From Simmondsia chinensis (Eukaryota; Streptophyta; Magnoliopsida; Caryophyllales; Simmondsiaceae): DNA of 64,000 nucleotides. This document shows positions 28 to 53,275 of the stretch, piece by piece; position 1 is the stretch's first letter, and each line of letters opens with the position of its first letter. Both the position numbers and the translations under genes were made by a program. The stretch spans positions 9,514,071 to 9,578,070 of the forward strand of contig JAGTTD010000024.1 of assembly GCA_018398585.1 (NCBI GenBank). The letters are read 5' to 3'. The notes beneath the pieces were generated by a model. That model did not search any database and was not told the DNA's origin. It saw nothing but the letters and a program-made list of their open reading frames with translations.

Positions 28-1390
28 CAACAACAACAACATCAAACTCAATGCCTCAAGAGCTCCCGCCAATGCAGGATCTGAGGGGTGAGATTTACGC
101 AGCCTTACCCCTTCAACGTGCTACCCTAAACGAAGGCTGTGTCCGAGGACCCCTAACCTGAAAAGCAAGTAAACAACAACAAGGAGAAAGCATAAACCAG
201 CAATAAATAAAAAAGCAACAAGCAGCAAAGCACATAGCACCACAAAGCAACAAAACACCGCGTGAGAATAGTGTGGCAAGCAACAAGTCACTAATAGTAG
301 ACAGCAATAGCCAGTATAAGCAAACGGGCATACCTAAAAGCCTAAGGGCGCTAGGACCAGCTTAGTTGTACTCCTCTAGTCTAAACCACTATTTCGGCTA
401 CACCAATGCTAGCCCTCCACTCAGTTCTATCAAAGGTTATCTCCTCATTTAGGTTTAGGCGGGTGAGGTCATGTCAAATCGTCTTCATCCAGCTCTTTTT
501 TGGCCTGCCTCTCCCTCTCCTCCCATGCGTAGTATGGAGTTGTTCGCATCTCCGGACAAGGGCAATGCTCGGTCTCCTCCTAACATGTACAAACCACCTC
601 AAACGTTGTTTCTTCAACTTATCCCCTATTGGAGCCATGCCCAATTATATCGTCATTTCTGATCCTATCCTTCCTTATGTGTTCACACATGTGCAGCATC
701 CTCATCTCAACTACCTTCAACTACTGCGTCTGGTCTTACTACCATCTTATAGTACTTTCTCTTTAACTTTAATGGGAACTTTCTATCACATAGCACCACA
801 AAGGCCATCCTCCATTTATGCCAACCTATTTTAATCTGGTTGTTGACATCCTCGTCAACTTCACCATCCTGTTCCACCATAGAACCCAAATATTTAAAAC
901 AGTCCTTTTCGTTATAAGCTCCAATCCAATCTTAACGTCTTCTATGCTTGGCCAGGCTGAGGTACAAAACTAGAGTTCCATATACTCGGTCTTGGATCTA
1001 CTGAGTCGTAAGCCTTTTGATTCCATGGCTATTCTCCAAAATTTCAGTTTTTCATTCACCTCTTCTCTAGACTACCCCACCAAAACTATATCATCAGCGA
1101 AAAGCATGCACCAAGGCACACCCCCTTAGATGTGCCTAGTGAGCTCGACCATAATCAGAATGAACAAAAAGGGACTCAAGGCTAATCCTTGGTGTACTCC
1201 AATTGTAATAGGGAAAGCATCTGTCTTCCTTTCTGTTGTACACATATTAGTTGTCCGTCCTAGTACATGTCTTTAATGACTCAGTTATAGGCCACAGGGA
1301 TGCCCTTTTTCTCCAAAACCCTCCATAGGACCTTTCTTGGCACTCTATCATATGCCTTCTCCAAATCAATGAAAAACATGTGAGATCATT
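28..1390 (-). mobile_element. RTE-type LINE, 5'-truncated, with 16-bp TSD
   Basis: This is a dead, 5'-truncated RTE-clade non-LTR retrotransposon read on the minus strand. The (CAA)n run at about 28-40 is the complement of the (TTG)n tail that ends RTE copies in this window. Next come the conserved tail block (about 50-160), a 3' UTR, and the end of the reverse transcriptase ORF with many stops and frameshifts (about 890-1390). One readable stretch is [20 protein letters not shown], near 860-800. The 16-bp direct repeat TTGTATATTTTATATA sits at 12-27 and again at 1391-1406, so both ends are exact. Other copies of the family lie at 2385, 5203, 7355 and 28867. It is not expected to encode a working protein. 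Confidence 0.9.
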
Positions 1391-6109: not shown

Positions 6110-6146
<37 letters not shown>

Positions 6147-6147
6147 G
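5203..6147 (+). mobile_element. RTE-type LINE, 5'-truncated, with (TTG)12 tail
   Basis: The plus strand starts within the RT ORF at [12 protein letters not shown] and continues through the end of the ORF (about 5745), a short 3' UTR, and the conserved tail block from about 5995. The tail ends CACTGGGAC(TTG)n, with the TTG run at about 6110-6147. The (TTG)n is followed directly by sequence belonging to a large LTR (see 6148-6901). No matching TSD was found on the left, so that edge is probably a rearrangement breakpoint. Long Gln or Leu runs predicted here come only from the (TTG)n repeat. Confidence 0.88.
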
Positions 6148-6901
6148 CATATCATAAAACATGATTCAAACCATATTTCCAAAATACCATAAATCAAAGC
6201 ATAATAACATAGCCAAATCTCACATTTCACAAACTTAGTCAATGATGCTTATTCAAATCATATTTCTGAAATTCCACATATCAAAGCATCATAGCCAAAT
6301 TCCATGTTTCACAAACTTAGTTAAAGATGTTTGATCCCATTTTAATTTCAAACACATAGAGGGTAAACATGTGGTGTACAAAGCAAGTATTTTGAGAATT
6401 TAAGAAGCTATTAACATAACAAAACACTTTAATAAAAGAGCAGCAGAGTTAACGAATAAGTTACTTACTTGTTGAAATAGGGCTCCCTTGAAATTCTAAA
6501 TTATGAGCTTACTTTTCCTAGCCTTCAATTCTCAATTCTTAATTACCTTAGGTGGAGAAAATGTGGAGTTGGATGATTTGGGAGTTGGCTAAAAGTGCTA
6601 GTTGTAGAAGGAGGGGTTGCTCCCCACTCCAATCCCATATTATACTTGCTCCCCACTCCATGCCTTATGCTTGCTCCCCACTTATTTTTTTTATTTCCTT
6701 GCTCCCTACTCCATGCCATATACAAATGCATATAAAATGCATACATACTCAAATACATGTAGGCATAATTATATACATTTGTGTCAAGCATAATATGATA
6801 TATAATTAGAGGTCAAATTGAGTCTGCTAAATACCAAAGGTTAGACTAACGGGAGAGATTTTATTTATTTTTTTTTTTTTTTTAAATTTCAGTTTCTTAC
6901 A
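6148..6901 (-). mobile_element. Large LTR copy A (partial, minus)
   Basis: This segment is homologous in reverse to the solo LTR at 36727-38122. Shared stretches include the complement of 'tactaagtaacttatttgttaactc' and of the 'cattgatttatggaattttgga' region. Its outer end reads TTTCTTACA, whose reverse TGTAAGAAA matches the TGTAAGAAAT start of the copy at 36727. The downstream half of the LTR is missing where the RTE LINE joins at 6147. No gene is present; local open frames are chance. Confidence 0.65.
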
Positions 6902-7354: not shown

Positions 7355-8757
7355 AACACAACCTAGCACCTCAATAGGCTCCCACCAAGGCAGGGTCCAG
7401 GGAGGATAAGATGTATAAAGCCTTATCCCTACAAGGTGATACCCAGTAAAAAGGTTGTTTTCGAAGGGTCCCAACCCTAAACATAACAATATTTATGAAA
7501 TCCAAGTCAAGTAAAGCAATAAGAAACATGCAAAAAAAAACAAGTGTGACAATACCAGACACACGACCTACGGGCATTGTGAACTACCATTGGTGTGCTC
7601 CTCTCTCCTAACAGTTATGTCGACCACACGCATTTTCAACCATCACACAGCTCTATCTAAGACCATCTTTTCGGTAAGGTTAGAAGGATAAGTTTGTGTC
7701 CAATCATCTCCATCCAGTTTTTGTTCGGCTTGCCTCTACCCCTCTTCCAATGTGTATTATGTAATGGTTCACATTTCCTAACAGGGGCGGTAGTCAATCT
7801 CCTCCTAACATGTGTAAACTATAGCAGACGTTGCTCCCTCAACTAATTTTCAATGGGATCCACACCTTATTTGTTTCTTATAACGTGATTTATGATCATG
7901 TCCTTCCTAGTATATCCACACATCCACCGCAACATTCTTATGTCCACCACCTTCAATTTTTCGGTCTGGTGCCTTTTAACTAGGCAATATTAAGCACCAT
8001 ATGACGTAGTCGGTCTCATTACCAACAAATAATATTTTCCCTTCAATTCTAGAGGAAACTTTTTATCACATAGTATCATTGAAACTTACTTCCACTTATG
8101 ACATCCCACTTTAATCTTATTATTATCATCCTCATCAACTCCAACATTTTGTTGCACCATACAGCCCAAATATTTGAAACATTCTTTTTCAGTTTACATT
8201 ATGTCTCAATCTTCAGGTCCTCTTCGTCTAGTTGTGATACAAAACTTAAATTCCATATACTCAATTTTGGATCTACTACACCGAAAACCTTCCAATTCCA
8301 ATGCACTTCTCTAAAGTTCCAACTTCTCATTCACCCCTTCAATTGACATGCCCGCCAAGACTATATCATCTGCAAAAACCGTACACTAGGGTACATCCCC
8401 AGGGATGTGCTTAGTGATCTCATCCATAACCAAACCAAACAAGAAAAAGCTCAAGGTTGATCCTTGATGCACCCAACTGCAATCGGGAAAGTATCGGTCT
8501 CCCCTTTTGCTGTATGCACATTGATCGATGCGTCTATATACACATCTCTAATGACTCGAGTAATTGGCAATGCCTTTCTTTTCCAAAACCCTTCATAGGA
8601 CCTCTCTTGGCACTCTGTCGTACGCCTTCTCCAAATCAATGAAGACCCAGTGTAAATCATTTTTGTTTGTCTCTGTAATAACAATTCTATAGTCCGTCAT
8701 AGAAGATGGATCGCTTCCATCATAGATCTACCCAACATAAATCCACATTTACCAAAA
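7355..8757 (-). mobile_element. RTE-type LINE, 5'-truncated, inside an L1
   Basis: Tail block at about 7355-7480 (complement of the RTE tail, with the (CAA)n decayed to ACACAACC). RT ORF remnants follow up to about 8757, where the reading is GFMLGRSMMEAIHLL, the start of the conserved RTE fingers region. The segments [13 protein letters not shown] (about 8650), VHQGSTLS (about 8455) and FADDIV (about 8365) can be recognised across frames. It is flanked on both sides by pieces of one minus-strand L1, so it inserted into that L1. I could not define the TSD. Confidence 0.82.
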
Positions 8758-17025: not shown

Positions 17026-18692
17026 TGATGCGTCTCATACTTACACATTTTTAATTGCTATTTTAATTATTTTGCATCTAATTAATTATATACTCACTTT
17101 GGCTCAAGTTGGGGGTCCTCGAAAACAACTTCTCATTAGGGTATCCCCCTGATAAGGTCAGGCTGCGTATATGCTACCCCTCCCAAACCCTGCTCATGCG
17201 AAAGCCCTTGTGGCACTGGGCCTGTTGTTGTTGTTGTACTCACTTTGGCAATTTTGATGTTTATAGGTTCGAAGATTAAAGTTCCATAAATTGTCAAATT
17301 TTGGTGCAAGCAAGACCAAAGTCAATGCGAAGGCAATCAAATCTAGTCAACCAGGTTCGGGATCATAAGCCTATCAGCCTAAACAGTCCAATCTTCTACT
17401 CCAGTTCACTAAATCAACTCAACCAGATCAGCAACGCAGGTCTAGCCCTGTTTCTCAGCCCATCGACACCGTCATCCTCTCACCGGTGCAGACCCATACT
17501 TAACGTCTCCAACACCCAGTTCAGGCCCATCGTTACTGTTCAAACCACTAGGCCCACACACCACGCCTCCAGCCCGACACCTCACGCTCAGTCCCAATAG
17601 CCCACACCTGTTCACACGCACCACACCGTCACCTCCTCATCCCAACCCACATCAGCCTTGGCCTAGCTCAAACTGTCAACCACCGGGCCCAGGTCCCAAC
17701 ACCGTTTAGGGTTTCGTTAGGCAGCGGAGTCGGGTTTTTTTTTTTTTTTGGGGGGGGGGGTGTGTTGGTGGTTAAGCAGGATTTAAGTTCTAATTTTTCC
17801 TCCGTTTTAGGGCACCGCTTCAGCACCACCTCATATTCTCAAATCCTCTCTCTCAATTAATTACTTTTCTAAATTTGTAACGTGAGCAATTAGCACAAGA
17901 TCGACATGGATTCATTCATCTCTTCCTTCACCGGTTCATCCTTGATGGAGAGCTAACTTGCTCTCTAGCGTTAGATGAAGCCTTAGCCTTATTTACTTTT
18001 GTATCACTTTTAAGGTTTGGGACAATTTGTTTGTCACATGAATTGCTTGATTTTGAAATAAATACTTTCAAGTATTATGTTTTTATCATTTATTCAATTG
18101 AGATGATTATTGAGTCTGTAACCTTTGATCGTTAATGTTGATATTTATAAATTAATTCTTCGTGCTTGTAGCCTTAGAATTAATTAATCAAGCAATAATG
18201 TTCATCGAATTGTTAATTTAAGCCCATCTTCCCTATGCTTTAGTTAGATAGGGTCAATACGCAATAATTAACAATATGTTAGGTTGAGCCTATTTTCCTT
18301 ATGCTTTAGTTAGATAGGGTCAATACACAATACTAACAACATCACCTTAGTAGGTTGAATCTTATAGTCTAAACTACTACCCGTGTAACAATCAATAGTC
18401 CCAATTTCAGAGTTAAATCAAGAATAATTGGCTAATGATGGATTTGAAACCCTAGGTTCCAATTCCAAACTCTTTTCCCCGTCAGAAGTAGATTTCTTTA
18501 GTTTAATTGTCGTTTCCTTAGAATAGTTAACACATAACCTTTCAATTTGTTTGAATCAATTTAGGTCATAAATTAAATTCACGTACTCTTAGTCCCTGTG
18601 GTTCAACACCCTCTCGCCCTAGACTTCAATTTGGATGTGTTTAGTGGATAGGGTTTAATATTAAATTTTGATAGGCGTAGAAAAACACATCA
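17026..18692. mobile_element. LTR-like element, 1667 bp, inserted in L1 ORF2
   Basis: It starts TGATGCGTCTC and ends AAACACATCA, giving TGATGYG/CRCATCA terminal inverted repeats. The flanks CAGAT (17021-17025) and TAGAT (18693-18697) match at 4 of 5 positions, consistent with a 5-bp LTR-type TSD. Joining the flanks restores the L1 frame (LLCWRQI|LGIRNL). No LTR pair, PBS or coding region is seen, so it is best read as a solo LTR or a TRIM-like unit. It includes a (T)14(G)10 tract at about 17737-17760 and a small direct duplication of CTATGCTTTAGTTAGATAGG at about 18234 and 18301. Confidence 0.7.
17104..17236 (+). mobile_element. RTE-tail-only insertion, 133 bp, 13-bp TSD
   Basis: It consists only of the conserved RTE tail (AGTTGGGGGTCCTCGAAAAC ... 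GTGGCACTGGGCC) ending in (TTG)n. It is flanked by a perfect 13-bp repeat TACTCACTTTGGC at 17091-17103 and 17237-17249. It is either a severely 5'-truncated RTE LINE or a truncated SINE sharing that tail. Confidence 0.9.
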
Positions 18693-28866: not shown

Positions 28867-30666
28867 GGTCTTCATTGGTTCAAAGAAGGCATAAGATAGA
28901 GTGCCAAGAGAGATCTTTTGAAGGGTTTTGGAGAAGAAAAGCATCCTCATATCATATATTCAAGTCATTAATGACATGTATGAGGACACATCAACCAATA
29001 TGCGTACAACGGAAGAGGAGACTGATGCTTTCCTAACTACAATTAGGCTACATCAAGGATCAACTTTGAGCCCCTTCTTGTTTGTTCTTATGATGGATAA
29101 GCTTACCAGGCACATTCAAGGGGATGTGCCTTAGTGTAAGCCTTTTGCAGATGATATACTCTTTGCGAGTGAGTAAGGAGAAAGAGTGAATGAGAAGTTG
29201 GAACTTTAGAAAAAATCCCTTAGAATCGAAAGGCTTACGGCTTAGTAGATCAAAAACGGATTACATGGAACTTAAGTTTTGTACCACAACCGGACCAAGC
29301 GTAGAGGACATGACGATTGGGACGATTTGCATACCCCAAAAAGAATGCTTAAGATATTTCAGCTCCATGGTGTAACAAGATGGTAAAGTTAATGAGGATG
29401 TTAACAACCAGATTAAATTGGGATGGCATAAGTGGAAGACGGCTTCAGCAATACTATGCAATTAAAATTTTCCCCTAAAGTTGATGGGAAAATGCTATAA
29501 AACAATAGTGAAACCAGCTATGTCATACGGGGCTGAATGTTGGCCAATTAAACAGCACCACATACAGAAGCTAAAGGTAGCGGAGATAAAGATGTTGCAA
29601 TGGATGTATGAAAATAGTAGGAAAGACAGGATCAAAAATGACGTTATAAGCAGCAAATTAGGCGAGGCTCCAATTGAGGACAAATCGAGGGATCGACGTC
29701 TGCAATGGTTCGAGCATGTTAGAAGGAGACAAATTACCGCCCTCGTTAGGAAATGTGAACAACTACATAACGCACACTGGTAGAAAGGTAGATGCAAACC
29801 AAAGACAAGCTGGATGGAAACGTTTAGACATGAATTTACCCACCTAGCCCTAGTAAGGAGATGGCCTTAGATAGATCTAAGTGGAGGTTAAAAATACCTA
29901 TGGTCAACACAGTTGCTAGGAGAGAGGAGCGCATAGATACTAGTTCACAGTGCACCTAAGCTTGCATGTCTGCTATTGTTGTTGCTTCATGCTGCCTGCA
30001 TGTTTAATATTTCTTTATTTGACTCGGATTTTACACATGTTGTTCCGTCTTTGCTTTTTTACGGTTGGGGGCTCTTCAGAAATAGCCTCCTTGCTAGGGG
30101 TGTAAATGAGCCGAGCTGGCTCGCGAGCCCTCGTGAGCCAGCTCGTCATACAACTCAAATGGCTCGACTTGCTTTGAGCTCGAGTCGAGCCAACCGGCTC
30201 ATTTATCTTATCGAACCGAGCTCGAGCCTAGCGAAGCTCGAGGTAGTAGACTCACGAGCCTAAGCTAGTTTTTCTTAATATAATATATTAACTTAAATAT
30301 GTCTAATGGAGCCATGTTTCAGCCTAAATGAGCCGAGCCCGATTGAGCTTAAATGAACTAAAATATTGAAAACCTAATTCAAAGCTCATCGAGCTTAACC
30401 AAATCGAGCTGACCCTGAGCCTTTGACGAGCCGAACTCAAGTTTGAACTTTCAAAGCTCAGCGAGCTTCAGGCTGAGCCCGAGCCAAGATTAATGCAAAC
30501 GAGCCAATCCTCGAGCCTAGCAAGCTCGGGCTTGACTCGGCTCAAATACTCCCCTACTCCGTACATGATAGCACCATGTAGAGATAAGGTTGTGTACATC
30601 TCACCCTTCCCAGACCCTACCTTGGCGGGAGCTTCTTTGAAGCACTTGGCCTGTTGTTGTTGTTGT
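28867..30666 (+). mobile_element. RTE-type LINE, 5'-truncated, 13-bp TSD
   Basis: The plus strand starts at VFIGSKKA.DRVPREIF (family pattern [18 protein letters not shown]) directly after TTTACACGTGCAT (28854-28866). The tail (TTG)n ends at 30666 before TTTACATGTACAT (30667-30679). The two flanks match at 11 of 13 positions, with two transitions. RT landmarks are RLHQGSTLSPFLFVLMMDKL near 29045, FADDILF near 29145 and PAMSYGAECWPIKQH near 29510. Stops are frequent. A MITE interrupts the tail at 30095-30556. It lies 90 bp upstream (in gene sense) of PPME1 exon 2. Confidence 0.9.
30095..30556. mobile_element. hAT-type MITE, 462 bp, inside RTE tail
   Basis: It starts TAGGGGTGTAAATGAGCCGAG and ends CTCGGCTCAAATACTCCCCTA, clear terminal inverted repeats (allowing some mismatches). 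The flanks CTCCTTGC (30087-30094) and CTCCGTAC (30557-30564) match at 6 of 8. The interior is dense in GAGCTCGAGC-like palindromic motifs. It splits the conserved RTE tail block, which continues at 30565. Confidence 0.85.
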
Positions 30667-32764: not shown

Positions 32765-34451
32765 TGTCATAACACTAAACTAAGCAAACACTTGGCCAAT
32801 AACTTATAAGTCAAATAAGAAAATTAATGGCCACTATGTTTAAGCTGTTGAAAATTTTATAATTCTGAGTTAGTTTTTGGAACTTCTACTAGAAATTGTA
32901 TTATTTGTTTCCAATCATATTATGAAGCATATCTCAGAGAAATGTTCCCAAGAATTTTGCCTTCCTTCCCAGCTAGTGGGTACCACTATGTCATAACTGA
33001 AATTGATAAACAATAAAATGAACACAAAGCCCAGCAAATAACAAATCCACAAACCAAAAACAAGAATCAAGCATACTTTAGCGTAAAAATGACATAGCAT
33101 CAAAATTAAAAGTAAAAGACATGCTAGAAATTAGGTAGAAAAACTTATGATAAACAATGAACAAACACATAAGCCATATAGTCTTTGGTTGGGGTCGCAT
33201 ACCATCCCTACAACAAGATTCGAAATTGGCTACCAGAAATAGTTCCCCGGCCAACTTCAAATTCAGAGAAACGTTCCAAACAATCCACTGCTAACGGATA
33301 TGGTATAGCCCGCATCATCGGCTCAAAGATATCTTCCCCCATCATCATAGGGCACAACCCACAAAACAAAGCATAAGAAGCCGAAAGTACACAATGCATG
33401 ACATATTTGCATATCATAAAACATAAATCAAATCAATCTTTATCATAAATCATAATAATATCTTATAACAAAAGGTTAAGTTCCATATTCCATAAATTTG
33501 GATAAATAAGCTTAATCCGATTTTAGTTCTTAACACATGTAGGAATGAGATGTCAATATGCCATATGCCAAAAGGAAGTTTTTTTTAAAAAGAATTTTGA
33601 GAAAGCCATAAAAAAAGCAACATTTCCAGTGCCCCAGGGGCTCCCACCTAAGCAGGGTCTGGGAGGGATGGATGTATGTAGCCTTCCCCCTTCAGGTGCT
33701 ACCTTGAAGAGAGGCTATTTTTGAGTACGCCCAACCTGAGGGGTGCAATACAAGGACTTTCCACGAGGTCACCCATCTTGGTACTACTCTCGCCCAAGCA
33801 CACTTAACTTTGGAGTTCTAATGGGATCCGATACTTGCATGTTGGTACCCTCTTAGGTAGAAAGCCATAAAGTATATTTGCAAATAAATAGATTAAAAAC
33901 ATTTGGAGGGTCTTAGTCAAAAGGGCAGAAAAACTAATTGATAAGCGAATTACTAGTATAAAAAAAGCTCCCTTGAAATCCAAAGTTATAGTGCAGCCTT
34001 CCTACACCTTGGCTCCTCTCTCGCTCCATTCTCAATATCAGTTGCTTTAAGTGGAGAAAATCTAAAATGTGAATGATGAGAGTTTGCTAGCGGTGCTATT
34101 TATAGAAGAGGGGGGAGGATAGGTCAAAGATTATGTGCACTGAAAGGGGTAGGCAAAAGTTGCACAGGTTATGACAATAATAATATATGCACTAATGTGA
34201 GGTTTATGAATTAATTGTAAGCCAAGAGTCACAAAGAATAACTTAGGTGTTAAGAATAAAATGCATCAATATCTATAATAACATTGTAAAAATAAATTGG
34301 GCTTACAAAAAGACCAAATTAGATAAATTGTGACTATAAGGGGTGAATTCTAAATTTCAATTCCTTATATTAGATATCCAAAACCTACTTCATCTAAAGA
34401 GTAATTGTCAACTTTTATTTTAAAGCGAAACTTATGATACACATGTATACA
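32765..34451 (-). mobile_element. Large solo LTR copy B (hosts the 5S-headed SINE)
   Basis: It is homologous in reverse to the LTR at 36727-38122. The left end TGTCATAACACTAAACTAAGC matches the complement of that copy's GCTAAGTTTGGGCTCGTGACA end, and the TATAAATAGCACCGC-type promoter region is at about 34110. The right end is ...TATACA. The flanks GAAGA (32760-32764) and GAACA (34452-34456) match at 4 of 5. Subtracting the nested 246-bp SINE and its TSD leaves about 1.43 kb, close to copy C (1396 bp). It has no internal domains, so it is a solo LTR. Confidence 0.68.
33613..33858 (-). mobile_element. Chimeric SINE: 5S rRNA head plus RTE LINE tail
   Basis: The minus strand begins with about 117 bp clearly derived from 5S rRNA (33735-33852). 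Its landmarks are CGGATCCCATTAGAACTCC, AAGTTAAGTGTGCTTGGGCG, AGAGTAGTACCAAGATGGG and TGACCTCGTGGAAAGTCC, then TTGTATTGCACCCC. It passes directly into the conserved RTE tail (GGTTGGGCGTACTCAAAAAT ... GGGAGCCCCTGGGGCACTGG), and then ATGTTGC and a T run. A perfect 13-bp TSD AGAAAGCCATAAA flanks it (33600-33612 and 33859-33871). The 5S internal promoter regions (A box, intermediate element, C box) are recognisable. About 8 bases near the 5S 5' end are missing. It carries no coding capacity and would depend on LINE machinery. Confidence 0.92.
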
Positions 34452-34824: not shown

Positions 34825-34943
34825 TCCCTTTAAGGTAGCACCCCAAAGGGGTAAGGCCACATACATTCCACCCCTTCCCCCCCAAAAAAAAAACACCCTG
34901 CATATGCAGAAGCCCTTGAGGCACTGGATTTGTTGCTGTTGTT
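34825..34943 (+). mobile_element. RTE-tail-only insertion, 119 bp, 14-bp TSD
   Basis: It contains the tail block (AAGGTAGCACCCCAAAGGGG ... GCCCTTGAGGCACTGGATT) and ends in a decayed TTG run. It is flanked by a perfect 14-bp repeat GGTAGGTTTGCATA at 34811-34824 and 34944-34957. The interior has a C7A10 tract. It is a truncated RTE LINE or SINE. Confidence 0.88.
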
Positions 34944-36726: not shown

Positions 36727-38122
36727 TGTAAGAAATATAAATTTTTTTAAGACTTAAAGTATTTCCCACACAAATTACTAATAAACTATAAGTTATTTGT
36801 CAAATTCTAGTTGGAATTTTTAGCCAAATCTTTTACTCATTTCATTAACAAAATAAGCCTTTATTTTGACCCAAAAGAAAGCCCCTTCCTTCTTGATCAA
36901 GCATGCCTTCATATATGACCAAGAAGTCCTCTTTTTGACTAAGCTAGCTTTGCTTTTTGACTTGAAGTCAAGCCCTCCATGTATGACTAAGAAAATTCAG
37001 CCTACATTCTCTCCTTTGAACACCCAAGCCTCACCTTTACTTCTATAAATACCCCTCATCACTCCCCTTTCCTTAAACCATCCAAATCCAAGTTCTTCAT
37101 TTCAAGTATGAGTAAGAATAAGAGTTGAGGTAGAAGAGAAAGAGCAAAAGTTTGTGCTTAGGATTTAGGAAAGCATTGTTTCTTCTAGTAAGTAACTTAT
37201 TTGTTAACTCTTCCGCTCTTTTTGTTAAAGTGTTTTAATATGTTAATAGCTTCTTAAATTCTCAAAATACTTGTTTTGTACACCATATATTTACCCTCTA
37301 TATGTTTGAAATTAAAATAGGATCAAACATCTTTGACTAAATTTGTGAAATATGGAATTTGGCTACATTACAATGCTTTGATTTATGGAATTTTGGAAAT
37401 ATGATTTGAATCATGTTCTATGATGTGCAAATATGAACTATATTTCTTATGCTTTGTTTTGTGGGTTGTGCCCTATGATGCCGAGGAAAGGCATCTTTGA
37501 GCCCTCGATGGGGGATTATACCATCTTTGTTATTAGTGCACTATTTGGAATGTTCCTCAAAACCCGTAGTTGGCCGGGGACCCAATTATGATAGCCAATT
37601 TTGAGCCCAGTTGCAGGGATTATATGCAGCTAGAACCCTAAGAATTCAGTTGATGCGTTCCTAAGTTTTCATAATTAATTTTTAGTAAACAGTTTCAGCT
37701 ATGTTTTGATGTGCTTCATGCCTTTTAAAATAATGCTTGATCCTTGTTTTGTTGACGGATTTGTTACTTGCTGAGCTTTATGCTCACCCTATTGTTTAAC
37801 AATTTCAGACAAGGCATAGAAAGCTAAGTGGAGAAATTCAAGGGACTTATCTTCTTCAGGGTTGAAGTGATTACAATCTGAGAAGACTTTCTTTTATGTT
37901 TTATGAGTTAGTAGTTCAGTTACATAAGAACATGTTTACTTTTGGAAGTCTTAGATGTTATTTTGAGTCTTGAACTCCAAGGGTCTGTATCATGTGTTAT
38001 TCGTTGTATTATTAAGCATATTTAGAATAAAGTTTCTTAGTATTTCACCTACGTTGACTATTGGTTCCCTTGTTGGCTTATAAGTCATTGGCCCATTGTT
38101 TGCTAAGTTTGGGCTCGTGACA
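36727..38122 (+). mobile_element. Large solo LTR copy C, 1396 bp, perfect TSD
   Basis: It starts TGTAAGAAATATAA and ends GGGCTCGTGACA, flanked by identical TTAAC at 36722-36726 and 38123-38127. A TATA-like CTATAAATACCCC lies at about 37041. The phrase CTTGCTGAGCTTTATGCTCA (from 37769) resembles one found in many plant Gypsy LTRs. No second LTR or pol is present, so it is a solo LTR. Copies A (6148-6901) and B (32765-34451) are relatives. Confidence 0.85.
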
Positions 38123-38700: not shown

Positions 38701-39128
38701 TTTCGAGTGTTGATCCTCATCAAAGTTCAATAAAACGGGTACAAAAACAACAACAGCTTCAAGGCGTAGTGAACTGCTTTCCTTAAGACTTATTTTGTCC
38801 TTAGTGAAATAGTCTAGGGGATACAATGAAACAAAAACACAAAGATAATATGTAGAGAGGATGGATTTCCTACGGAAGAAGAAGAGAATTATATAATTTT
38901 TCCTTGTATTTTTGCCTTTAGTCTAATTTTGGGGGCTTTATATAGAACAATTTGTGTCTTTTAGAAGAGACAACCTTCCAAAAAGCCACAAAGCATTTTC
39001 CCAAACGTCAAAACAAACCCGTGCCAAATAACGGCTAGAACTGCCCTATGACACATAGACTCAGCCTTTGGGCATTAAGGCTTTCTGAAAGATTGTGTAT
39101 CTGTGTCAACACATGATACAAGCCCAGA

Positions 39129-39667
39129 ACTTTGCCCAGACTTAGAGAGGAAGTATGAAGCGGAGAGAAGAGAGAGGTTAAAGGTAGAGAAGAGGGAGCT
39201 TTTCTATTTTTTGGATGGATAAAATGGCTGATAAAATTGTAGTATTTATAGCCCTAATTGTGACCGTTGGGAGCAACCTTGAACTCCCGATGGTTAGCTT
39301 TGAAGGGGTTCGTCGCATGGGAACAAGAAGTAGTAATGGAGGTCTTGCTTGGGAGAGACAGACACGTATTTATGAGGCACATTGGTAGCCGGTGAAAGAA
39401 AAGAAAATATTTCCAATAAAATAAAAAATACCCGTTATAAAAAGGGCACCCACACCCACACCCACACCCGAGCACCGCACAGAGTGCGGGCGGCACGCGC
39501 ATATGAGGTTCCCACCATTTTTTCACCCTTAACTTAATTCAAATCCTTGTCTTTATAAGGCCATATATAAACTACCCCTCCTTTCTCTAAATTATCCATG
39601 TGGGATGTGGGTTTTAGCTTAGGACTTCAATTATTCAATTTGGCTAAGCTTTGTTATATTTCCAACA
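39129..39667 (-). repeat. 3' LTR of decayed Copia
   Basis: It contains a (CCCACA)n-like tract at 39451-39468 that is shorter in the partner LTR. It ends toward the polypurine tract at 39668-39677. It could extend left to 39102 if the GTATC TSD is real. Confidence 0.65.
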
Positions 39668-42111
39668 GTCCCCCACAAATGTCACAAAGCTAAAGGAAAG
39701 AAATCAGTCTGGGCAAAAGGGCGAGCTTAGCTTTTCAATGTCGATGTCTAGCGACTTGAATCGACACCTAGTACGTAACAAGTTTAAGACCGACAGCTTG
39801 TCAGGTAACTTTCGTTTTGAACATGACAAGAGGTTGTATAGTCTTCCACCTGGGCACATACCAAACTCAAAATATCTCAGCAAATCCCGCAGTTTGACGC
39901 TTTTATCGGCCATGCGTCCGTCCTGGATTTTCATAGGTGCTCAAGAAGGCAAGTCTCCAACCTTCATAGGGAGCAGCCACACCCCACACCTACATAGGTA
40001 GATCCTATCAAGTGCGTGTTACTTCGCACCACCAAATAATGGCTATGGCTCCATTAAGAGCTAATGCTCATCCTCATCACCTTAGTAACAATTTCTGGGT
40101 TCCATCAAGTGTGACTTAGCTCACACCACCAAAATTATGGCTATGGATTGCCCAACACTGCCAACATCATAGGGAGGGACAATTATTGATTACAGTGTAC
40201 AATCGAACTGAACTATAACTTACTCATTGAACCTGTATAAACCAAGTTGAGATACATCACAATGAATTCACTTTACAGACTTTAATCCCATCCCCCTCGA
40301 TGCATTTCTAATACAATTTTCCGACAAAGCGTCTTTATCAATGAATCCACAAGGTTCTTTTCAGACCTTACACAATTTAGTGATATCACTTTCTTTCGAG
40401 TAGATTGTTTACGATCTTATTCCTAAGACGAATAAGTCTCACTAAGAGCATGGAGCTCATCCTTGACATCATGGCAGGTCGGTGTGTCCATCAAGTGTGT
40501 TGCCACACACCACCATAACAGGCTATGGACAACATTAAGAGCAGAGCTCAACCTCAACATTTTAGCAAATTCAACATATCCTTAAGCCACAAAACAGCAT
40601 TAGCTCATAATGGGCTAGGGTGCATCTATTTTATCAAATCTTCCCTTCTCAAGAGGCACTCGGTATAAGTCGCCTTCTTAAAAGGCCTTTTATTAAGAAG
40701 ATCTATCAAGCAGTCTCACTCCTAACTCGAGTGAGATCATGAGTGTTCCTTGACACAATAGCTAAGGCAATAGCCCTTAGCTTGCCAAACCCATCAGGTG
40801 TGCAGTGCCCACACCATCCTTCACGAATTATGGGTAGGTCAACGCTAAGCTCAACCTTCACAAATGCAATTACGACACTGCAAATGAAGAAAAGCGGTAC
40901 TTAAGTTGGTCACTGCCAACAACAGTCATAAGTTGCTCTTACCCCCCACATTGAGGCATCTGCAACGAGTTGTTAAACAACCAGCTCCATATCCTACCAA
41001 CTTCAACAAGAGTCAATGTAACAAAATAGTGGAGCAAATATTATATTAATAAAATCATATCTCCACCCCAAGTACTCATATAGTACACACACAGTCGGCA
41101 AAATAATTTTATACCGCGGAATATCAATATTACATACTAGCACAAGAGTGAAATTTTTTCAATCTTAACTTAACCCAACCACCACTAGTTGGTTCTCAAA
41201 AGACCATAATCTATGAATTGTCTTTTATCATTCAAACTAAGGCAACCCAAGCCTTTGCAAGGCTCTCAAATTCAAGTGTTAGCATCACCAAACTATTCGC
41301 GCTGAATTTGAACGGTCACCACAATAATATTTCCACCATAATCAATTCCCATAAGCTAGCTATAACTAGCGAACCTGGAACATAATAATCGCAAGAGATT
41401 GTGACCAGACAACATATTTCATAGGCTCTTAGGTGCTCACATTAACCCCCACAATGGAATGTATCACCCTACATTCCCAAGCCATTTAATTTTTCTATCT
41501 ACCAACTTAGACTTTAAGGTCAATTCAGTAGTACAGGTCTGAGAGGGGTATCCCAAAATACAATTCACTAACAAGCCTAAGCACATAGTCATTAGTAGGA
41601 TAGTTCTCATCAATATTAGATACCCAATTGGCATCACATTATCCATTTGACATAACATAGACTCTATTACAATGTAAGCCCCGATGCATAGTACTTCAAT
41701 GGTACATCAACACTTTCATTATAGAACTGCTCATCATGTGAATCACGAGTATATAAACTAGGTTTACTAGATTATGTTATATTAGGATGAGCGTTGTTCT
41801 TTACAAACATTATGCTATCAAACACCTTAGTGCATTTTGCATGTGATATACAATCAACTTTATACCTCTATAAGTGAACACTAGAATCATTTGAAATCTA
41901 TTAGCATGTCATCAAGAGTGAAAATCCTTAGATGGTCTAAGATCTTTGCAGACCAACTTTACCAAAGTCCTTCATGTCAAAGCATGAGATTAAAAGACTT
42001 GGCAGCATATTGATCTTTCAAAATCATGCCAAAATTATCATATAAACAAAATACATCACACCCATTCTCATTATTTTTAGAGTACACAAATTCATGTGTG
42101 AGCAACACTTA

Positions 42112-43120: not shown

Positions 43121-44358
43121 AAGAAGATATGATATGGTGTATGTAGAATAATCGCCTACAGGTATCCTTTTCCACTTTTACTCATTTGATTTTGAAGTCC
43201 CCTAAGTTACCGTGAGCTAGCTTAAGAAGTTCAATTTGTCTCTCAACTGATTTAAAGGGCACTGTTAGCTGGTTTAGCTTTCACGCATATTTTGCATTTA
43301 GTAATGTTGGCACTACTAAAATTAGGGATCAAATCAATTTCTTAAGTCATTTAATAGAGTCAAGATTTATGTGTACTATGCAAATATGCCATGAGTCAAG
43401 AAACTCGAGGATGTATGTATAAGAAGTACTGATAACAACATGCATCATACAAATTTTAAAGTATGTATTATCAAAGTCTTAGGTCTGATTAATTTTAAAC
43501 AACATTTTAAAGACCAAAAATAATATTCCCTTCTTTTATGTTTTTGGACCACTAATATTTTTAATTCAATATATACCTAATTTGGGCTTCTCTTTCCAAG
43601 ACAACCCATAAGAGCCTTATATTATTATTATCATTATCTTCTTTTTAATTCCAAGAAGATGCTTTAAAGAACCCAAATTCCAACCCAAGTGTCTCTCCCT
43701 ATTTCCCATGACCACCGCAACCACCCTTCTGGTATTTCCAGTGAGCTTCTCCACTTAGCCCGACAAATAGCACTGTCGGAACCCGCCTCCCGGAGGCGGC
43801 TGGAAACCTCCCTTATAAGGCAACCCCAGCAGGTGCCTGCCTTCGACCTGTGGCACACGTAAAAGTTCACATCTTTTTACGCTTCAACACTTCTCTTATT
43901 GCACTACGAGTTTTAGTTTCTAGGTAGTTCTATATAACATTTCTCTGATCATCCCAAAAACTCTTCTTTTCCTCCACACTATTCCAATTCACTAATTAAT
44001 TGTTTTTAATTTTGTCTTATGCACATCTCTCATGAAAAATAATCAATTTTCTCCAGGTCTAACTAACCACATTATTATGTTCTAACAGCTTATACTAAAC
44101 TACTTTAGATATCCAAAAATCATCTTTTAGATTGTCGTAAAAACAATAATCAAAACCGTAAGCTACAGCAAAGAAAACAGCAAAGTGAGGAAAGATCTAA
44201 CGAAACGAAAAACCGCGCCGTGGTATAAGTCACTGTCCTAAAAGACAATTTCGTCGCTGCCTAGGGTGCAAACAGAGTTACCGGCGGCCGTCCTCCAGGA
44301 TTAACGCAATCCGACCTTTAATGTCCACTCGTTAGAAGCCAGGTGGGATGCCGAGAGA

Positions 44359-44871
44359 ACTTTGCCTAGACTTAGAGAGGAAGTATGACGCGGAGAGGAG
44401 AGAGAGGTTAGAGGAAGAGAAGAGAGAGCTTTTCTATTTTTTGGATGGATAAAATGGCGGATGAAAGCCCTAATTGTGACTGTTGGGAGCACCCTTGAAC
44501 TCCCAACGGTTAGCTTTGAAGGGGTGCGTCTCGTGGGAACAAGAAGTAGTAATGGAGGTCTTGCTTGGGAGAGACCGACACGCATTTACGAGGCGCATTG
44601 GTAGCCGGTGAGAGAAAAGAAAATATTTCCGATAAAATAAAAAATACCCGTTATAAAAAGGACACCCACACCCGAGCACAGCACGGCGGGCGGGCGGCGC
44701 ACGCGCTTGTGGTTCCCACCATTTTTTCACCCTCAACTTAATTCAGATCCTTGTCTTTACAAGGCCATATGTAAACTACCCCTTCCTTCTCTAAATTATC
44801 CATGTGGGGTGTCGGTTTTAGCTTAGGACTTCAATTATTCAATTTGGCTAAGCTTTGTTATATTTTCAACA
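44359..44871 (-). repeat. 5' LTR of decayed Copia
   Basis: A close copy of 39129-39667. Open frames here (for example about 44301-44736) have counterparts in the partner LTR and are not genes. Confidence 0.65.
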
Positions 44872-44876
44872 GTATC

Positions 44877-47984: not shown

Positions 47985-48895
47985 TAGAGCTCTTCATGGA
48001 TTGAAAGACATGTCCGTTTTAAGTTATAAGGTATGTTATATGCCTTACCTGCGTTTAGCTCGTCCAAAGCCTTTTCAGGGTGCTTTCAGCCATAAGACGT
48101 TCAAAAAAATTATATAAGTACTTAGAGCTCTTCAAGAGCTTCATTTTGATATAAAATTTGATTCGTAACTCTTCACGGATTGAAAGAGAAATCCGTTTTA
48201 AGTTGTAAGGTATGTTATACGCCTTACCTGTATTTAGCTCGCCCAAAGCCTTTTTTGGGTGCTTTCTGCCATCATACGTTCAAAAACTTTATATAGTTAT
48301 TTAGAGCTCCTCAAGAGCTTCATTTTGATATAAAATTCGATCCATCACTCTTCACGGATTGAAAGTTATGTCTGTTTTAATTTGCAAGGTAAGTTGTACG
48401 CCTTGTATGCTTTTGCTCGCCCAAAGCCTTTTTCGGGTACTTTCTGTCATCAAATGTTCAAAAAAATTATATGAGTACCTAGAACTGTTTAAGAGATTTG
48501 TTTTGATATAAAATTTGGTCCATAACTCTTCACAGATTGAAAGTTATGCCTGTTTTAAGTTGTACGGTAAGTTACCTAACCACAACGGGCGATCTGCTAA
48601 CCCGGTTCACATTTTATATGCTTTCTTTTATCCAAAAGCTCAAAAAACTATTGTAGTTATCTAGGAATCTTCAAGAGCTTCGTTTGATGGGTGATTTGGC
48701 TCGTAGCTCCTCAAGGATTAAGAATTATGTTTGTTTAAGTCTCAGGCTCAACTTATATAAGCCATCAATCTCTACCATATTAGATAAATGCCAACCATGT
48801 CTTTTCTATTCTTTTTTGGGTAGAGCTTCAAGAGCTTCATTTTGATATATGACTCACTCTATAACTCCTTACGGGGTAGAAAGTTATGTCTGTCA
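47985..48895 (+). repeat. LARD tandem repeat R1, about 180 bp x 5
   Basis: Units begin ATTGAAAG(A/T)(C/T)ATGTC(C/T)GTTTTAAG near 47998, 48178, 48358 and 48537, with weaker ones near 48717 and 48875. Each unit contains GCTCGCCCAAAGCCTTTT and GAGCTTCATTTTGATATA. Divergence rises to the right. Confidence 0.85.
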
Positions 48896-49716
48896 AGAAG
48901 AGAAGTGTGTTGACCACCCTTGCTAATTTGACCGTCATCCTCCCAACAAACCTTTGCACCACACTTCGAACCCCATCTCCATGACCACCGCAAGCAACTA
49001 CGGCACCCTAGCTCGCCAAATCTCACTCGCTTGACCTTGGTCGCCCAAGTCGTGGCTCGTCGGTGTCCTGGCTCGCCATTGCCCGTTGCTCGCCTCGTGC
49101 CAGTGCCACCATTTTCTAATCCCGGAATATAAAGCATACACAGTCTAACAACGAAACATAAGTGCAAATCAAAAGATAAATACAAGCACCAAGTTCAGAA
49201 GCATCAAAAGTACCAACAAAAAGATGACAAAGTTACATGATTCACTCTAAAAACTTTGCTGGGACATGCAAAAAATCTCATAACCCTCTCGGGAATTGCA
49301 AAACAGGCTTATTATCTCTTTCCATCATTGATTAATCCGATTACTCTATGAATTTCTCATCCATATATTTTATTCACCCACAAAAGCAACTCCAAAGCAT
49401 ACAATTCATCAAATAGGAATACAAGCCACAGTTGTCACCCGTGAAAACTAAGATACCCAACATATGCGATCATGCTCGTTATTTGCCTACAAGGCATTAA
49501 CAAGTGGCGTATAATCAAAGAAACGGAATCTCACCATACTAAAGCCACTTGGTACGTTGCATGATATCGCCATCTCTCGAAATCAAATGTCATCGGAAGC
49601 TAAGTACCTTTAAGAGACATTGAATCTATGGTACATTTAAAACAAAAATAGTCCCACAAATGGTAAGGGCTGGGAAAGTTTGTCTTTGTCCATGATCTCC
49701 TTTCTATGGTGGTAGC

Positions 49717-50237
49717 AAATCATATTAGACTGAGGGACTTTACCTCAGTCATTTCCTTATTTTAGGAGCAAATCATATTAGACTGGGGGACTTCGCCTCA
49801 GTCATTTTCTTATTTTAGGAGCAAATTATTTTAGAGTTGGGGGACTTCGCCTCAGCCATTTCCTTATTTTAGGAGCAAATCATATTAGACTGGGGGACTT
49901 CCCTCAATTATTTCTTTATTTATAGGAGCAAATCATATTAGATTGGGGGACTTCGCCTCAGGTATTTCCTTATTTTAGGAGCAAATCATTTTAGAGTTGA
50001 GGGACTTCGCCTCAGTCATTTCTTTATTTTGATGACAAACCATTTTAGGACAGCTAAACTTCGCCTCAATCATTCCTTTATTTTGATGGCAAATCACTTT
50101 CATACTAAATGACTTTGCCTCAGTTATATCATTAAGGGTGACATAAATCTCTTTAAGACTGGGGGACTCCGCCTCAATCATTTTCTTAACGATGGTGCGA
50201 ATCATTTCAGGACTAGGGGACTTCGCCTTAGTCATGA
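49717..50237 (+). repeat. LARD tandem repeat R2, about 53 bp x 10
   Basis: The consensus is GAGCAAATCATATTAGACTG, then GGGGACTTCGCCTCAGTCAT, then TTCCTTATTTTAG. Ten units are recognisable. The minus strand of part of it is open (50235-49975), giving a repetitive peptide that is an array artefact. Confidence 0.88.
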
Positions 50238-50269
50238 GTTGGATTTTGCACCCTTGTCTTAGTAGGGTA

Positions 50270-50790: not shown

Positions 50791-53159
50791 AATCATTTCT
50801 CATGACCATAGGACTTCAAAGGCTAGATGTCATTTCCATTACAATGGGTAAACTACTCCAAAATTGAGAGAAATCACAATCAACAATGAGTGAGAGTACA
50901 TTTCTTTCGCACGACACAAATCGTATTAGAGTAACTACAAGTCGGGATCTACTCATTCATGAGATGCTATCCCTTTCAAAGCTAAGTAAGCTTCACCCCC
51001 AATCATGAAGCTTAACACAACATAGCGATATACTTAAGAGACTTCGTTATTCACTACAAGTTAGAGATCGAGTTGTAATTAAGCAACTTAGCCTCTTATG
51101 TTGACCTAATAAAACATTTTGCAACTGAAAAGTCCAACATGGATCACACATATTACTGTACCTAAACAACTTATACTTTAACCAACTTCTTGCTAAGTTA
51201 TTTAGTACAACTGCCAGCCAACAACTTGGTAAGGACAATATAAGATATCGTCATCATCTGCTTAGTGCCACCTTCTCGATCGCATACATTCTGTGGTGTC
51301 ACATAATCGGTACTTCCAAACCATGAAAACAACTTCTCAACAATCATAACAACTCAATAATAAAAATCCCTTATAAGGATGACAATCTAAACAGCTAGCA
51401 ATAAGGAAAAACTAGTCCAATACCTGCGATAGTCTATTTTAAAGTTGTCTTGAACTTCCTTACATATAATCTAAAACTCCTTTCACAGCCTAATCGATCT
51501 AGCAATGATTGCTGACAATAGGGGAACACACAATAAGGGTTCATTGAGTCCTTTTAGATACCTCATGATCCTAAGGCTAGAATAACAAGATTGATATATA
51601 CAAAATAGGGTTATGCCAATAGTTCAAAACTGTTGTAGTAGGTCTACGGCAACGGTTTTTGAACCGTTTAATACGCAGCATTTGTCGTAGCTTATGGCAA
51701 TGGTTTTTTGCACAATAGCAACGCTCTAGAAACGTTGTTGTAGAGTTATCAATGGCAGCGATTTTTGGCTTCCATACGACAACGGTTTTATTTCCCTAAG
51801 GGAACAGTTTTTTTTAACAGAATTGCTTTTGCAGTAGTTTTTTGCATAATGGCAACAGTTGCTATATTTAGTTTTGTTTATCGCAATGGTTATTTCATAA
51901 ACTATTTTACAACATTTTTTTTTTTCCTGTGGCAACAATTTTTATAGGTAATAGTCTATAGCAATGCTTTTTTAGCATAAACCACTACGATTTGGGATAT
52001 TTATTACAACAATTTTGACCTTTGGCAATAGGTATCGTATTCAATACTTCATATTGCAACGGTTTTCAGCAAAGAAGCCAAAAATTTGGGATACCCATTG
52101 CAATAGTTTATTTACCTATAACAATAGTTCTATATATGTTTATAATCCTTTACTGTAATAAAATTCTTGGTCCAATACAGCCACAACAACGATGGAAAAC
52201 TTAATTTTCCAAACAAGAAACATCCACCACAATCCAATTTCATCTATTGACAACAAAATTGCCACCAACTGTCAACAAAATTACAACCATCCATCAAGTC
52301 CAGTATAAAAGCCCAATTAGTTAACAAGACAATCCACCAAAGCACAAAATAGCCTAACGCTCCATTGTAACTGACAAAAATATGCACCGCCTAATAGTTT
52401 TGAGGTTTACTATATGTAATAACAGAAAAAAAAAAAAAAAAAACATCTTCAACATCATATTCTTCAACCTGCCATAAGAAAACATTAAATTATGAGCACA
52501 AAGTTGAGCAACATTTAATAAAGGACACATTCCTCCTTTACATTGACTAGCCATAATTTCAGTTAGTTGGCTCTTTATAGCATAAACACTGAGAAATAGT
52601 GAAAGTTCAACTGTTTTTGTATTCTAGATGTTGTTATTGAGTAGAATTATGGTGAAGGTGGTCTTATTTTGAGAAGTCAAACCATTTGATGAACTCATAC
52701 GTTGGATACAAAGCGTCAGTCTGCTTGCTAAAAACACAAGAAATTAATTAACCTCTACTATGTAGATGTCATACAATAAAACAACTTTGAAAAGCATTTA
52801 TTTTGGACCTTTGACAAGTGCGGAAACTTAATCAAATTGAAGCATCATAGAAAAAGTAAACATAAAATCAAACATAACCAAGATTTAACTATTTTCTTCA
52901 CATTAAGAACTCACGAATGACGCTACCAGGAGGGCAGAAAATGTTATAAGGATAATAGAATAATTAAACATAAGAACTTCATAGCAAAAAATCTCAAGCC
53001 ACATTCAACCAAACCAAGAACATCTTAAAAAACAATCTCATGCGAAGTGAACATAAATCATATTGCATCTCATTTATCATGCAATCTCTAATCTCTAATT
53101 GAAGCACACATTCTCTAGCTTAAATATATAAGTTGGGCCAACAACAGCCTTTCTCGTTT

Positions 53160-53275
53160 CACAAGGGCTCCCGCCGAGGCAGGGTCTAAGAGGGGCAAGA
53201 TGTACGCAACCTTACCCCTTCAGGGTGTTACCCTAAAAAGAGGCTATGTTCGAGTGCCCCCAACCCTGAAAAGCA
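53160..53275 (-). mobile_element. RTE tail fragment
   Basis: The minus strand carries the tail block (CAGGGTTGGGGGCACTCGAA ... GGCGGGAGCCCTTGTG) without a (TTG)n end. A second, more decayed tail lies at about 54365-54440. No TSD was found for either. Confidence 0.7.

What the first reader, a model, noticed from the sequence alone, without database searches (positions are those of the whole stretch)
33600..33871. A 5S rRNA-headed SINE with an RTE LINE tail, flanked by a perfect TSD
The 246-bp element joins a 5S rRNA-derived head directly to the same tail that ends the RTE LINEs at 28, 5203, 7355 and 28867. The perfect 13-bp TSD AGAAAGCCATAAA shows that the chimera moved as one unit. 5S-headed SINEs are established in animals (the SINE3 class of fish). 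Plant SINEs I know are mainly tRNA-headed, and I do not recall a well-established plant 5S-RTE family. The A box, intermediate element and C box of 5S are recognisable, so it could have been transcribed by polymerase III with TFIIIA. This is my best candidate for an undescribed system.
Basis: partly seen in the sequence, partly recalled or inferred. Interest (0 to 1): 0.88.

Follow-up and report, generated by a model that had tools for sequence, protein, structure and literature searches.

The report
A plant 5S rRNA-headed SINE family
The window holds one copy of a large dispersed family of short jumping sequences in a plant, each built from 5S ribosomal RNA joined to the tail of a longer jumping element; 5S-headed families are known in animals and fungi, but I found none described in plants.

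Summary
At 33600-33871, read on the minus strand, a 246-bp insertion carries a full-length 5S rRNA head (RF00001 1-120, 62.5 bits) and the 3' tail of the local EN-RT LINEs, inside a perfect 13-bp TSD. Two element-free copies of the host repeat lack head and tail together. In the window's own 831-Mb land-plant assembly the head-tail junction occurs 3,427 times at up to 2 mismatches (reversed-pattern control 0). Two samples (40 and 28 copies) give the same consensus but for one base. TSDs differ between copies. The head shares two positions with the genome's own 5S array, so it probably comes from the host lineage's 5S. Its first 11 nt are replaced by a family-specific sequence; from nt 23 it is nearly canonical and the promoter boxes are kept. 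The family is old: the nearest copies are 92-96% identical to the consensus. The novelty is a 5S-headed SINE in a plant; the passages that I read know only tRNA-headed plant SINEs. Pol III transcription was not testable.

The parts
33859..33871 (-). target site duplication, copy at the 5' end of the element (TTTATGGCTTTCT in sense)
   Evidence: perfect 13-bp repeat
33740..33858 (-). 5S rRNA-derived head, 119 nt
   Evidence: RF00001 1-120, 62.5 bits; 93 of 108 identical to a recalled plant 5S over nt 12-119
33847..33858 (-). remodelled 5' end (ACCTAAGAGGGT), shared by the family; nt 1-11 do not match 5S
   Evidence: consensus of 40 and of 28 copies; pattern of the 31-nt 5' end: 2,648 matches at up to 3 mismatches, control 0
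33795..33809 (-). A box (5S nt 50-64, positions recalled): 14 of 15 in this copy, 15 of 15 in the family consensus
33787..33792 (-). intermediate element (5S nt 67-72, positions recalled): 6 of 6
33761..33779 (-). C box (5S nt 80-98, positions recalled): 17 of 19 in this copy, 18 of 19 in the family consensus
33613..33739 (-). LINE-derived tail, starting TCAGGTTGGG, with two small predicted hairpins near the 3' end
   Evidence: SINE tail consensus 83-87% identical to the four best of seven LINE 3' ends
33610..33616 (-). terminal T run; the only run of four or more T in the sense strand of the element
33600..33612 (-). target site duplication, copy at the 3' end
32986..34113 (.). older repeat into which the element inserted
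   Evidence: matches 37157-37819(-) and 6145-6616(+), both without the element
6145..6616 (+). element-free copy of the host repeat
37157..37819 (-). element-free copy of the host repeat
28922..29131 (+). reverse transcriptase fragment of a LINE whose tail is of the same kind
   Evidence: PF00078 E 1.5e-5, below the curated cut-off; 150 matches among 150 scored of 5,645 candidates in the genome
5998..6116 (+). LINE 3' tail, followed by (TTG)n
40..162 (-). LINE 3' tail, followed by (TTG)n
7361..7479 (-). LINE 3' tail, without (TTG)n
30557..30658 (+). LINE 3' tail, second part of the LINE at 28867 (first part 30061-30097)
53153..53268 (-). LINE-type tail copy
17104..17229 (+). tail-only insertion with TSD TACTCACTTTGGC, starting at the same base as the SINE's head-tail junction
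34825..34938 (+). 5'-truncated tail copy with TSD GGTAGGTTTGCATA

Best explanation
The element is one decayed copy of a dispersed SINE family of the 5S-headed kind, with thousands of copies in this plant genome. Inferred life cycle: the 5S-derived head keeps the type 1 Pol III internal promoter (A box, intermediate element, C box). RNA polymerase III transcribes from the 5' end, is not stopped at the former end of 5S because the 5S terminator has been replaced by TCAGGTTGGG, and runs through the LINE-derived tail to the terminal T run. The tail, which matches the 3' end of endonuclease-reverse transcriptase LINEs of the same genome, is recognised by the LINE protein, which copies the RNA into a new site by target-primed reverse transcription and leaves TSDs. 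The founder most likely arose when the LINE reverse transcriptase, copying LINE RNA, jumped at the TCAGG position to the 3' end of a 5S rRNA of the host lineage. Shown: the multicopy family, its fixed junction and fixed 5' end, differing TSDs, the shared tail, a host-like 5S head, and joint absence of head and tail at two paralogous sites. Inferred: Pol III transcription, use of the LINE enzyme, the template jump.
For: Element query: 40 matches among 40 scored (8,044 candidates in the first look), near full length at 86-100%. Junction pattern 3,427 matches at up to 2 mismatches, control 0; 5'-end pattern 2,648 at up to 3 mismatches, control 0. Of 40 regions fetched from 100 listed exact-junction places one (L105) had mistyped coordinates and was dropped; 39 of 39 match the consensus across the listed junction and 27 of 39 are near full length there. 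The two consensus sequences differ at 1 of 236 positions (the second uses 28 copies, these 27 and a neighbouring copy in L071). TSD score 11 or more: 18 of 40 vs 1 of 776; 15 of 28 vs 3 of 810. Own 5S: tandem units on contig C8; in the array at 6.41 Mb all 66 unit readings (overlapping loci) have T39 and A81, as in the SINE. No TTTT before the 3' end in the consensus. LINE open frames of 670 and 727 aa with RVT_1 and endonuclease matches, tail 1.2-1.3 kb downstream on the same strand, 84.6 and 86.9% identical to the SINE tail. SINE 3' ends read (C)TTT in 47 of the 66 ends that could be read among 79 copies, LINEs mostly (TTG)n: the same split that PMC13295347 reports for legumes (introduction).
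Against: No transcript or small-RNA data. The nearest copies differ from the consensus by 4-8%, so nothing shows present activity. The T-rich upstream signature of RTE insertion is strong in one sample (15 of 18) and near background in the other (6 of 15; background 1,791 of 6,012). 22 of 40 and 13 of 28 copies have no TSD at the score used. RTE-clade membership of the LINEs was not tested by a tree. The two tail hairpins do not stand out from shuffles by covariation, and the tail of the window copy folds no better than shuffles (z 0.17). The empty-site alignment is not base-exact.
Confidence: 0.93

Rival explanations
1. A one-off chimera: during one LINE insertion the reverse transcriptase switched from LINE RNA to 5S rRNA, giving a single 5S-tail copy that never multiplied.
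For: From the window alone this could not be excluded: one 5S match in 64 kb, the exact 3' end of 5S at the junction.
Against: 3,427 junction matches, a common 5' end that is not 5S, and a shared consensus with differing TSDs.
Confidence: 0.01
2. Dispersed copies of 5S rDNA units or 5S pseudogenes, or DNA-level spread of one segment, not retrotransposition.
For: 16 of 20 sampled loci hold a match over the Rfam 5S gathering score.
Against: The 5S genes found lie in tandem units of about 420-440 bp on C8 (40 scored of 565 candidates) with TTTTT right after the gene; the dispersed copies carry the LINE tail instead and about half are bounded by TSDs that differ from copy to copy.
Confidence: 0.02
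3. The 5S head was not taken from 5S rRNA directly but from the LTR of a Cassandra element (a 5S-carrying plant TRIM).
For: Cassandra is widespread in land plants and its 5S region follows host 5S promoter changes (PMC10853983 passages; PMC10886601 passage).
Against: The SINE head reaches the exact 3' end of 5S (CACCCC) and differs from the genome's own 5S at only 2 of 97 positions in nt 23-119, whereas Cassandra keeps a core of about 70 bp (over 100 nt in some species) with variable motifs between the boxes (passages). Cassandra copies of this genome were not retrieved, so this is not a direct test.
Confidence: 0.07
4. A copy of a tRNA-headed plant SINE whose head only resembles 5S.
For: Plant SINEs are described as tRNA-derived (PMC9033089 passage) and tobacco TS SINE shares its tail with an RTE LINE (PMC3747384 passages).
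Against: RF00001 1-120 at 62.5 bits; the consensus head differs from the own 5S at 14 of 119 positions, 12 of them in nt 1-22; ARAGORN finds no tRNA in the window.
Confidence: 0.005

Closest known systems
SINE3 / 5S-headed SINEs of animals (fish SINE3, lepidopteran HaSE3 and relatives)
   Same: 5S rRNA head with the three promoter boxes, LINE-derived tail; lepidopteran SINE3 also diverge upstream of the promoter (PMC10886601 passages)
   Different: Animals; the SINE3/AmnSINE1 tails listed come from CR1-type LINEs (table in PMC3747384). This family is in a land plant, its head is host-like 5S and its 5' end is a family-specific replacement
Ped-1 (springhare)
   Same: Nearest in build: 5S rRNA head with a BovB (RTE clade) tail (table in PMC3747384)
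   Different: A mammal; head, tail and host are independent (inference, sequences not compared)
TS SINE of tobacco
   Same: Plant SINE whose last 100 bases or so match a plant RTE LINE (PMC3747384 passage)
   Different: tRNA head; ends in TTG repeats, not a T run
Au SINEs / AngioSINE superfamily
   Same: Plant SINEs; Au-like ones end in poly(T) (PMC3747384 passage); many angiosperm SINEs share a 37-bp 3' Angio-domain (PMC9033089 passage)
   Different: tRNA-derived heads. Presence of the Angio-domain was not tested (the defining paper is not held)
Cassandra
   Same: Plant retroelement that uses a 5S-derived promoter
   Different: LTR retrotransposon; [quoted passage not shown]

Membership tests
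5S-headed SINE (SINE3-type) | 5' head derived from 5S rRNA | tested here: met
   RF00001 1-120; own 5S comparison
5S-headed SINE (SINE3-type) | type 1 promoter boxes retained | tested here: met
   A box and IE identical, C box 18 of 19 in the consensus against a recalled plant 5S; box positions recalled
5S-headed SINE (SINE3-type) | transcribed by RNA polymerase III | not testable with these tools
   no RNA or ChIP data
5S-headed SINE (SINE3-type) | multicopy, dispersed, flanked by copy-specific TSDs | tested here: met
   TSD found in 33 of 68 copies
5S-headed SINE (SINE3-type) | 3' tail shared with a LINE of the same genome | tested here: met
   tail found in 7 of 8 LINE loci; 83-87% for the four best
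5S-headed SINE (SINE3-type) | common descent with animal SINE3 | not tested
   unlikely: the head shares T39 and A81 with this genome's own 5S; no animal SINE3 was aligned
SINE mobilised by an RTE-clade LINE | partner LINE belongs to the RTE clade | tested here: inconclusive
   one frame with endonuclease and RT matches and (TTG)n ends, which PMC3747384 gives for plant RTE (passage); no RT tree was made
SINE mobilised by an RTE-clade LINE | thymine stretch about 10 nt upstream of the TSD | tested here: inconclusive
   TTT in -18..-7 in 15 of 18 and 6 of 15; background 1,791 of 6,012 12-mers of the first sample's flanks
tRNA-headed plant SINE (TS, Au, AngioSINE) | tRNA-derived head | tested here: not met
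   head is 5S; no tRNA in the window
AngioSINE superfamily | 37-bp Angio-domain in the 3' part | not tested
   reference sequence not available
Cassandra | 5S inside LTRs with short LTR-type TSDs | tested here: not met
   5S runs from the 5' end of a 246-bp unit with TSDs of 11-20 bp; the 5-bp TSD of such elements is recalled

The most novel reading that the evidence does not exclude
This is the first 5S-headed SINE family in plants: it was born inside this plant lineage when a LINE reverse transcriptase jumped onto the host's own 5S rRNA, then gained a new 5' end (ACCTAAGAGGGT) that is nearly the inverted complement of its own tail hairpin (ACCCTGCTTAGG), as if the first-strand DNA had folded back on itself through the GGGT of 5S nt 1-4. 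Elements of this kind are the predicted but unseen donors of the 5S promoter in Cassandra LTRs.
Probability: 0.4. Interest if true: 0.72.

Novelty: new variant of a known kind. Interest (0 to 1): 0.64.

Why it matters
Plant SINEs are described as tRNA-derived (PMC9033089 passage), and in 2024 the Cassandra study pointed to SINEs in animals for the capture of genic promoters of this sort (PMC10853983 passage). A plant 5S SINE widens the set of Pol III genes that plant retroposons have captured, and repeats, outside animals, a pairing of a 5S head with this type of LINE tail that is known from Ped-1 in a mammal. It bears on an open question: Cassandra has been speculated to come from a SINE3 insertion into an LTR (PMC10886601 passage), and I found no such SINE described in a plant. 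Practical points: 16 of 20 sampled loci hold a match over the Rfam 5S cut-off, so 5S gene counts made by covariance model in this genome would be inflated by SINE copies; and the plant SINE finder AnnoSINE drops candidates that are nearly identical to Rfam RNAs (PMC8825457 passage), which could hide young families of this kind.

Tried and rejected
Rejected: one-off chimera; 5S rDNA dispersal; tRNA head (see rivals). Viral and prokaryote contig scans for the junction, the plant 5S end or the tail gave 12, 0, 0 and 0 places; the 12 show no element similarity. Hairpins in the tail: RNAalifold finds them, but covariation does not exceed shuffles. Fold-back origin of the 5' end: the inverted match to the tail hairpin is reached by 86 of 50,000 random and 79 of 50,000 shuffled 12-mers, 262 of 50,000 random and 647 of 50,000 shuffled with GGGT fixed; the same 12-mer in direct orientation scores 8.0 against 9.5. 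Pairing with the junction is reached by 282 of 20,000 random and 99 of 20,000 shuffled 12-mers, but the 8-nt addition alone against the tail start is not unusual (2,573 of 20,000), and the pair probabilities in the folded consensus are 0.23-0.55. So it is only suggestive. A second apparent tail-only insertion (L020:348) has an upstream flank like that of the L117 LINE (read by eye), so only the one at 17104 remains. The reading of uneven head divergence in the window copy as proof of family descent (Fisher p 4.8e-5) was not needed once the genome answered. Two plant papers from the search listings were checked for prior 5S SINEs: a Metrosideros repeat table gives 68 bases to SINE/5S-Deu-L2, too little for a family; the Solanum repeat paper says that nine unknown potato repeat consensus sequences matched Rfam RNAs including 5S rRNA, without further detail in the passage.

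Full report
What is in the window. The insertion at 33600-33871 reads on the minus strand: TSD TTTATGGCTTTCT, a 119-nt 5S rRNA head (33858 to 33740), a 127-nt tail (33739 to 33613) ending in a T run, and the second TSD copy. Rfam gives RF00001 positions 1-120 at 62.5 bits, E = 9.9e-11 for 64 kb, the only family over its gathering score in the window.

One insertion. The perfect 13-bp repeat is one of 17 13-mer repeats at spacing 249-269 among 1,337,700 position pairs; the other 16 lie at 49743-50330, where one search shows tandem arrays. The element lies in an older repeat (32986-34113). Two other copies of that repeat, 6145-6616(+) and 37157-37819(-), lack both the 5S and the tail, so head and tail arrived together. 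The alignment is not base-exact: about 35 bp next to the target site are also missing from both copies.

A family. The genome search answered after many busy replies: the window is part of an 831,394,711-base, 35-contig assembly, and the 40 scored matches of the element (8,044 candidates in the first look) are near full length at 86-100%. NAC domains are matched 133 times, with 0 of 14 control genomes, so the host is a land plant (that NAC is a land-plant family is recalled); it was not named. The 23-base junction pattern has 3,427 matches at up to 2 mismatches, with 0 for the reversed pattern. The 31-base 5' end has 2,648 at up to 3 mismatches, again with 0. I fetched 39 further copies by similarity (with the window copy 40) and 40 regions picked by hand along the 100 listed exact-junction places, of which one had mistyped coordinates and was dropped. 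All 39 remaining places match the consensus across the listed junction and 27 are near full length there. The second consensus uses 28 copies, these 27 and a neighbouring copy in L071, and equals that of the first 40 at 235 of 236 positions.

TSDs. With the TSD required to end within a few bases of the element's start, 18 of 40 copies score 11 or more (mismatched flanks 1 of 776), and 15 of the 28 copies of the second sample (3 of 810). The repeats differ from copy to copy. TTT 7-18 nt upstream, as published for plant RTE SINEs (PMC13295347, introduction read), is seen in 15 of 18 in the first sample but 6 of 15 in the second (background 1,791 of 6,012), so this signature is not settled. SINE ends are (C)TTT in 47, TTG in 4 and other in 15 of the 66 ends that could be read among 79 copies; LINE ends are mostly (TTG)n.

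Age. Copies differ from the consensus by 4.7-11.0% in the first sample and 5.5-17.9% in the second, largely C>T and G>A. The 40 copies scored best against the consensus are 92-96% identical to it. The family is therefore old, and no young copy was seen.

Source of the head. The genome's 5S genes that were found lie in tandem units on contig C8 (40 scored of 565 candidates). Those of the array at 6.41 Mb differ from the recalled plant 5S at nt 12, 39, 81 and 95; in 66 of 66 unit readings from overlapping loci these four positions read C, T, A, T. The array at 4.69 Mb was not read. The SINE consensus shares T39 and A81 but has T12 and C95. From nt 23 to 119 the SINE differs from the own 5S only at 79 and 95. 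The head was thus probably taken from a 5S of this lineage, before C95T if the recalled reference is ancestral there. The A box and intermediate element are intact and the C box has one change against the recalled plant 5S. Where the 5S gene has its TTTTT terminator, the SINE reads TCAGGTTGGG, and the consensus has no TTTT before its 3' end.

Source of the tail. The genome holds many LINE copies related to the window's RT fragment (150 matches among 150 scored of 5,645 candidates). Of eight LINE loci held (L110-L117) seven contain the tail at E 1e-3 or better, L114 does not. Two fetched LINEs have open frames of 670 and 727 aa with RVT_1 and endonuclease matches (the Exo_endo_phos_2 match of the first is below its curated cut-off). 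The SINE tail consensus is 84.6 and 86.9% identical to their 3' ends and 86.9 and 83.3% to those of L113 and L112; identity was computed for these four best only. PMC3747384 (passages) states that plant RTE LINEs end in (TTG)n or (TTGATG)n and nearly all plant L1 in poly(A), which fits RTE, but no RT tree was made.

The 5' end. Both consensus sequences begin ACCTAAGAGGGTACC. This can be read as an 8-nt addition, GGGT kept from 5S nt 1-4, and loss of nt 5-12. The first 12 nt are nearly the reverse complement of the tail's own hairpin, ACCCTGCTTAGG, with one base skipped. None of the seven other tails of the window carries CTTAGG there; among the headless tails of other loci one (L050:564) reads CTTAGA and the consensus of 17 reads CTTTGG. 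A fold-back of the cDNA through GGGT would give this, but the chance level is about 0.2-1.3% depending on the null and the choice was made after seeing it, so I keep it as an idea.

Mechanism. Shown: a dispersed, TSD-flanked, multicopy unit with a fixed 5' end, a fixed 5S-LINE junction and a LINE tail. Inferred: Pol III transcription from the 5S promoter, mobilisation by the LINE protein in trans, and birth by a template jump from LINE RNA to 5S rRNA. One tail-only insertion (17104) begins at the very base where the 5S head is joined, which would fit a preferred stop of the reverse transcriptase there, but it is a single case.

Known and new. 5S heads are known in animal SINE3 (PMC10886601 passages), and fungal 5S-related SINEs are reported (PMC5063351, abstract in search listing). 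A 5S head with an RTE-clade tail is known in springhare Ped-1 (table in PMC3747384). [quoted passage not shown] Ten searches of the open-access library showed no plant 5S SINE in the titles and abstracts listed; one search was poorly specific. Two listed plant papers were opened at the terms and describe none. Subscription papers, Repbase and SINEBase were not searched, so prior description is possible.

Noticed in passing
window 17091-17245: A tail-only insertion with TSD TACTCACTTTGGC starts at the same base (TCAAGTTGGGG) at which the 5S head is joined in the SINE; it may mark a preferred stop of the LINE reverse transcriptase.
   Followed up: partly
family consensus nt 1-12 and the tail hairpin ACCCTGCTTAGG: The remodelled 5' end is nearly the inverted complement of the tail hairpin and also pairs with the head-tail junction.
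   Followed up: partly
L070-L089: 16 of 20 loci hold a match over the Rfam 5S gathering score (15 at the sampled copy, in L071 at a neighbouring copy), so 5S gene counts by covariance model would be inflated in this genome.
   Followed up: yes
L071 426-636 and 683-918: Two copies of the SINE within 500 bp of each other.
   Followed up: no
window 28867-30658: A LINE whose 3' tail is split by about 450 bp (30100-30557) of other sequence.
   Followed up: no
window 49707-50689 and 47990-48525: Tandem arrays with periods of about 53, 66 and 179 bp.
   Followed up: no
window 39126-39669 and 44356-44873: Two direct copies at 91-93% identity, about 5.2 kb apart, possibly the LTRs of one element; not examined.
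   Followed up: no
window 62787-62954: An 84-bp unit duplicated head to tail at 99% identity.
   Followed up: no
G000 contig C8, 4.69 Mb and 6.41 Mb: 5S rDNA units in two places in opposite orientation, 96-97% identical to the recalled plant 5S, with unit lengths of about 435 and 425 bp.
   Followed up: partly
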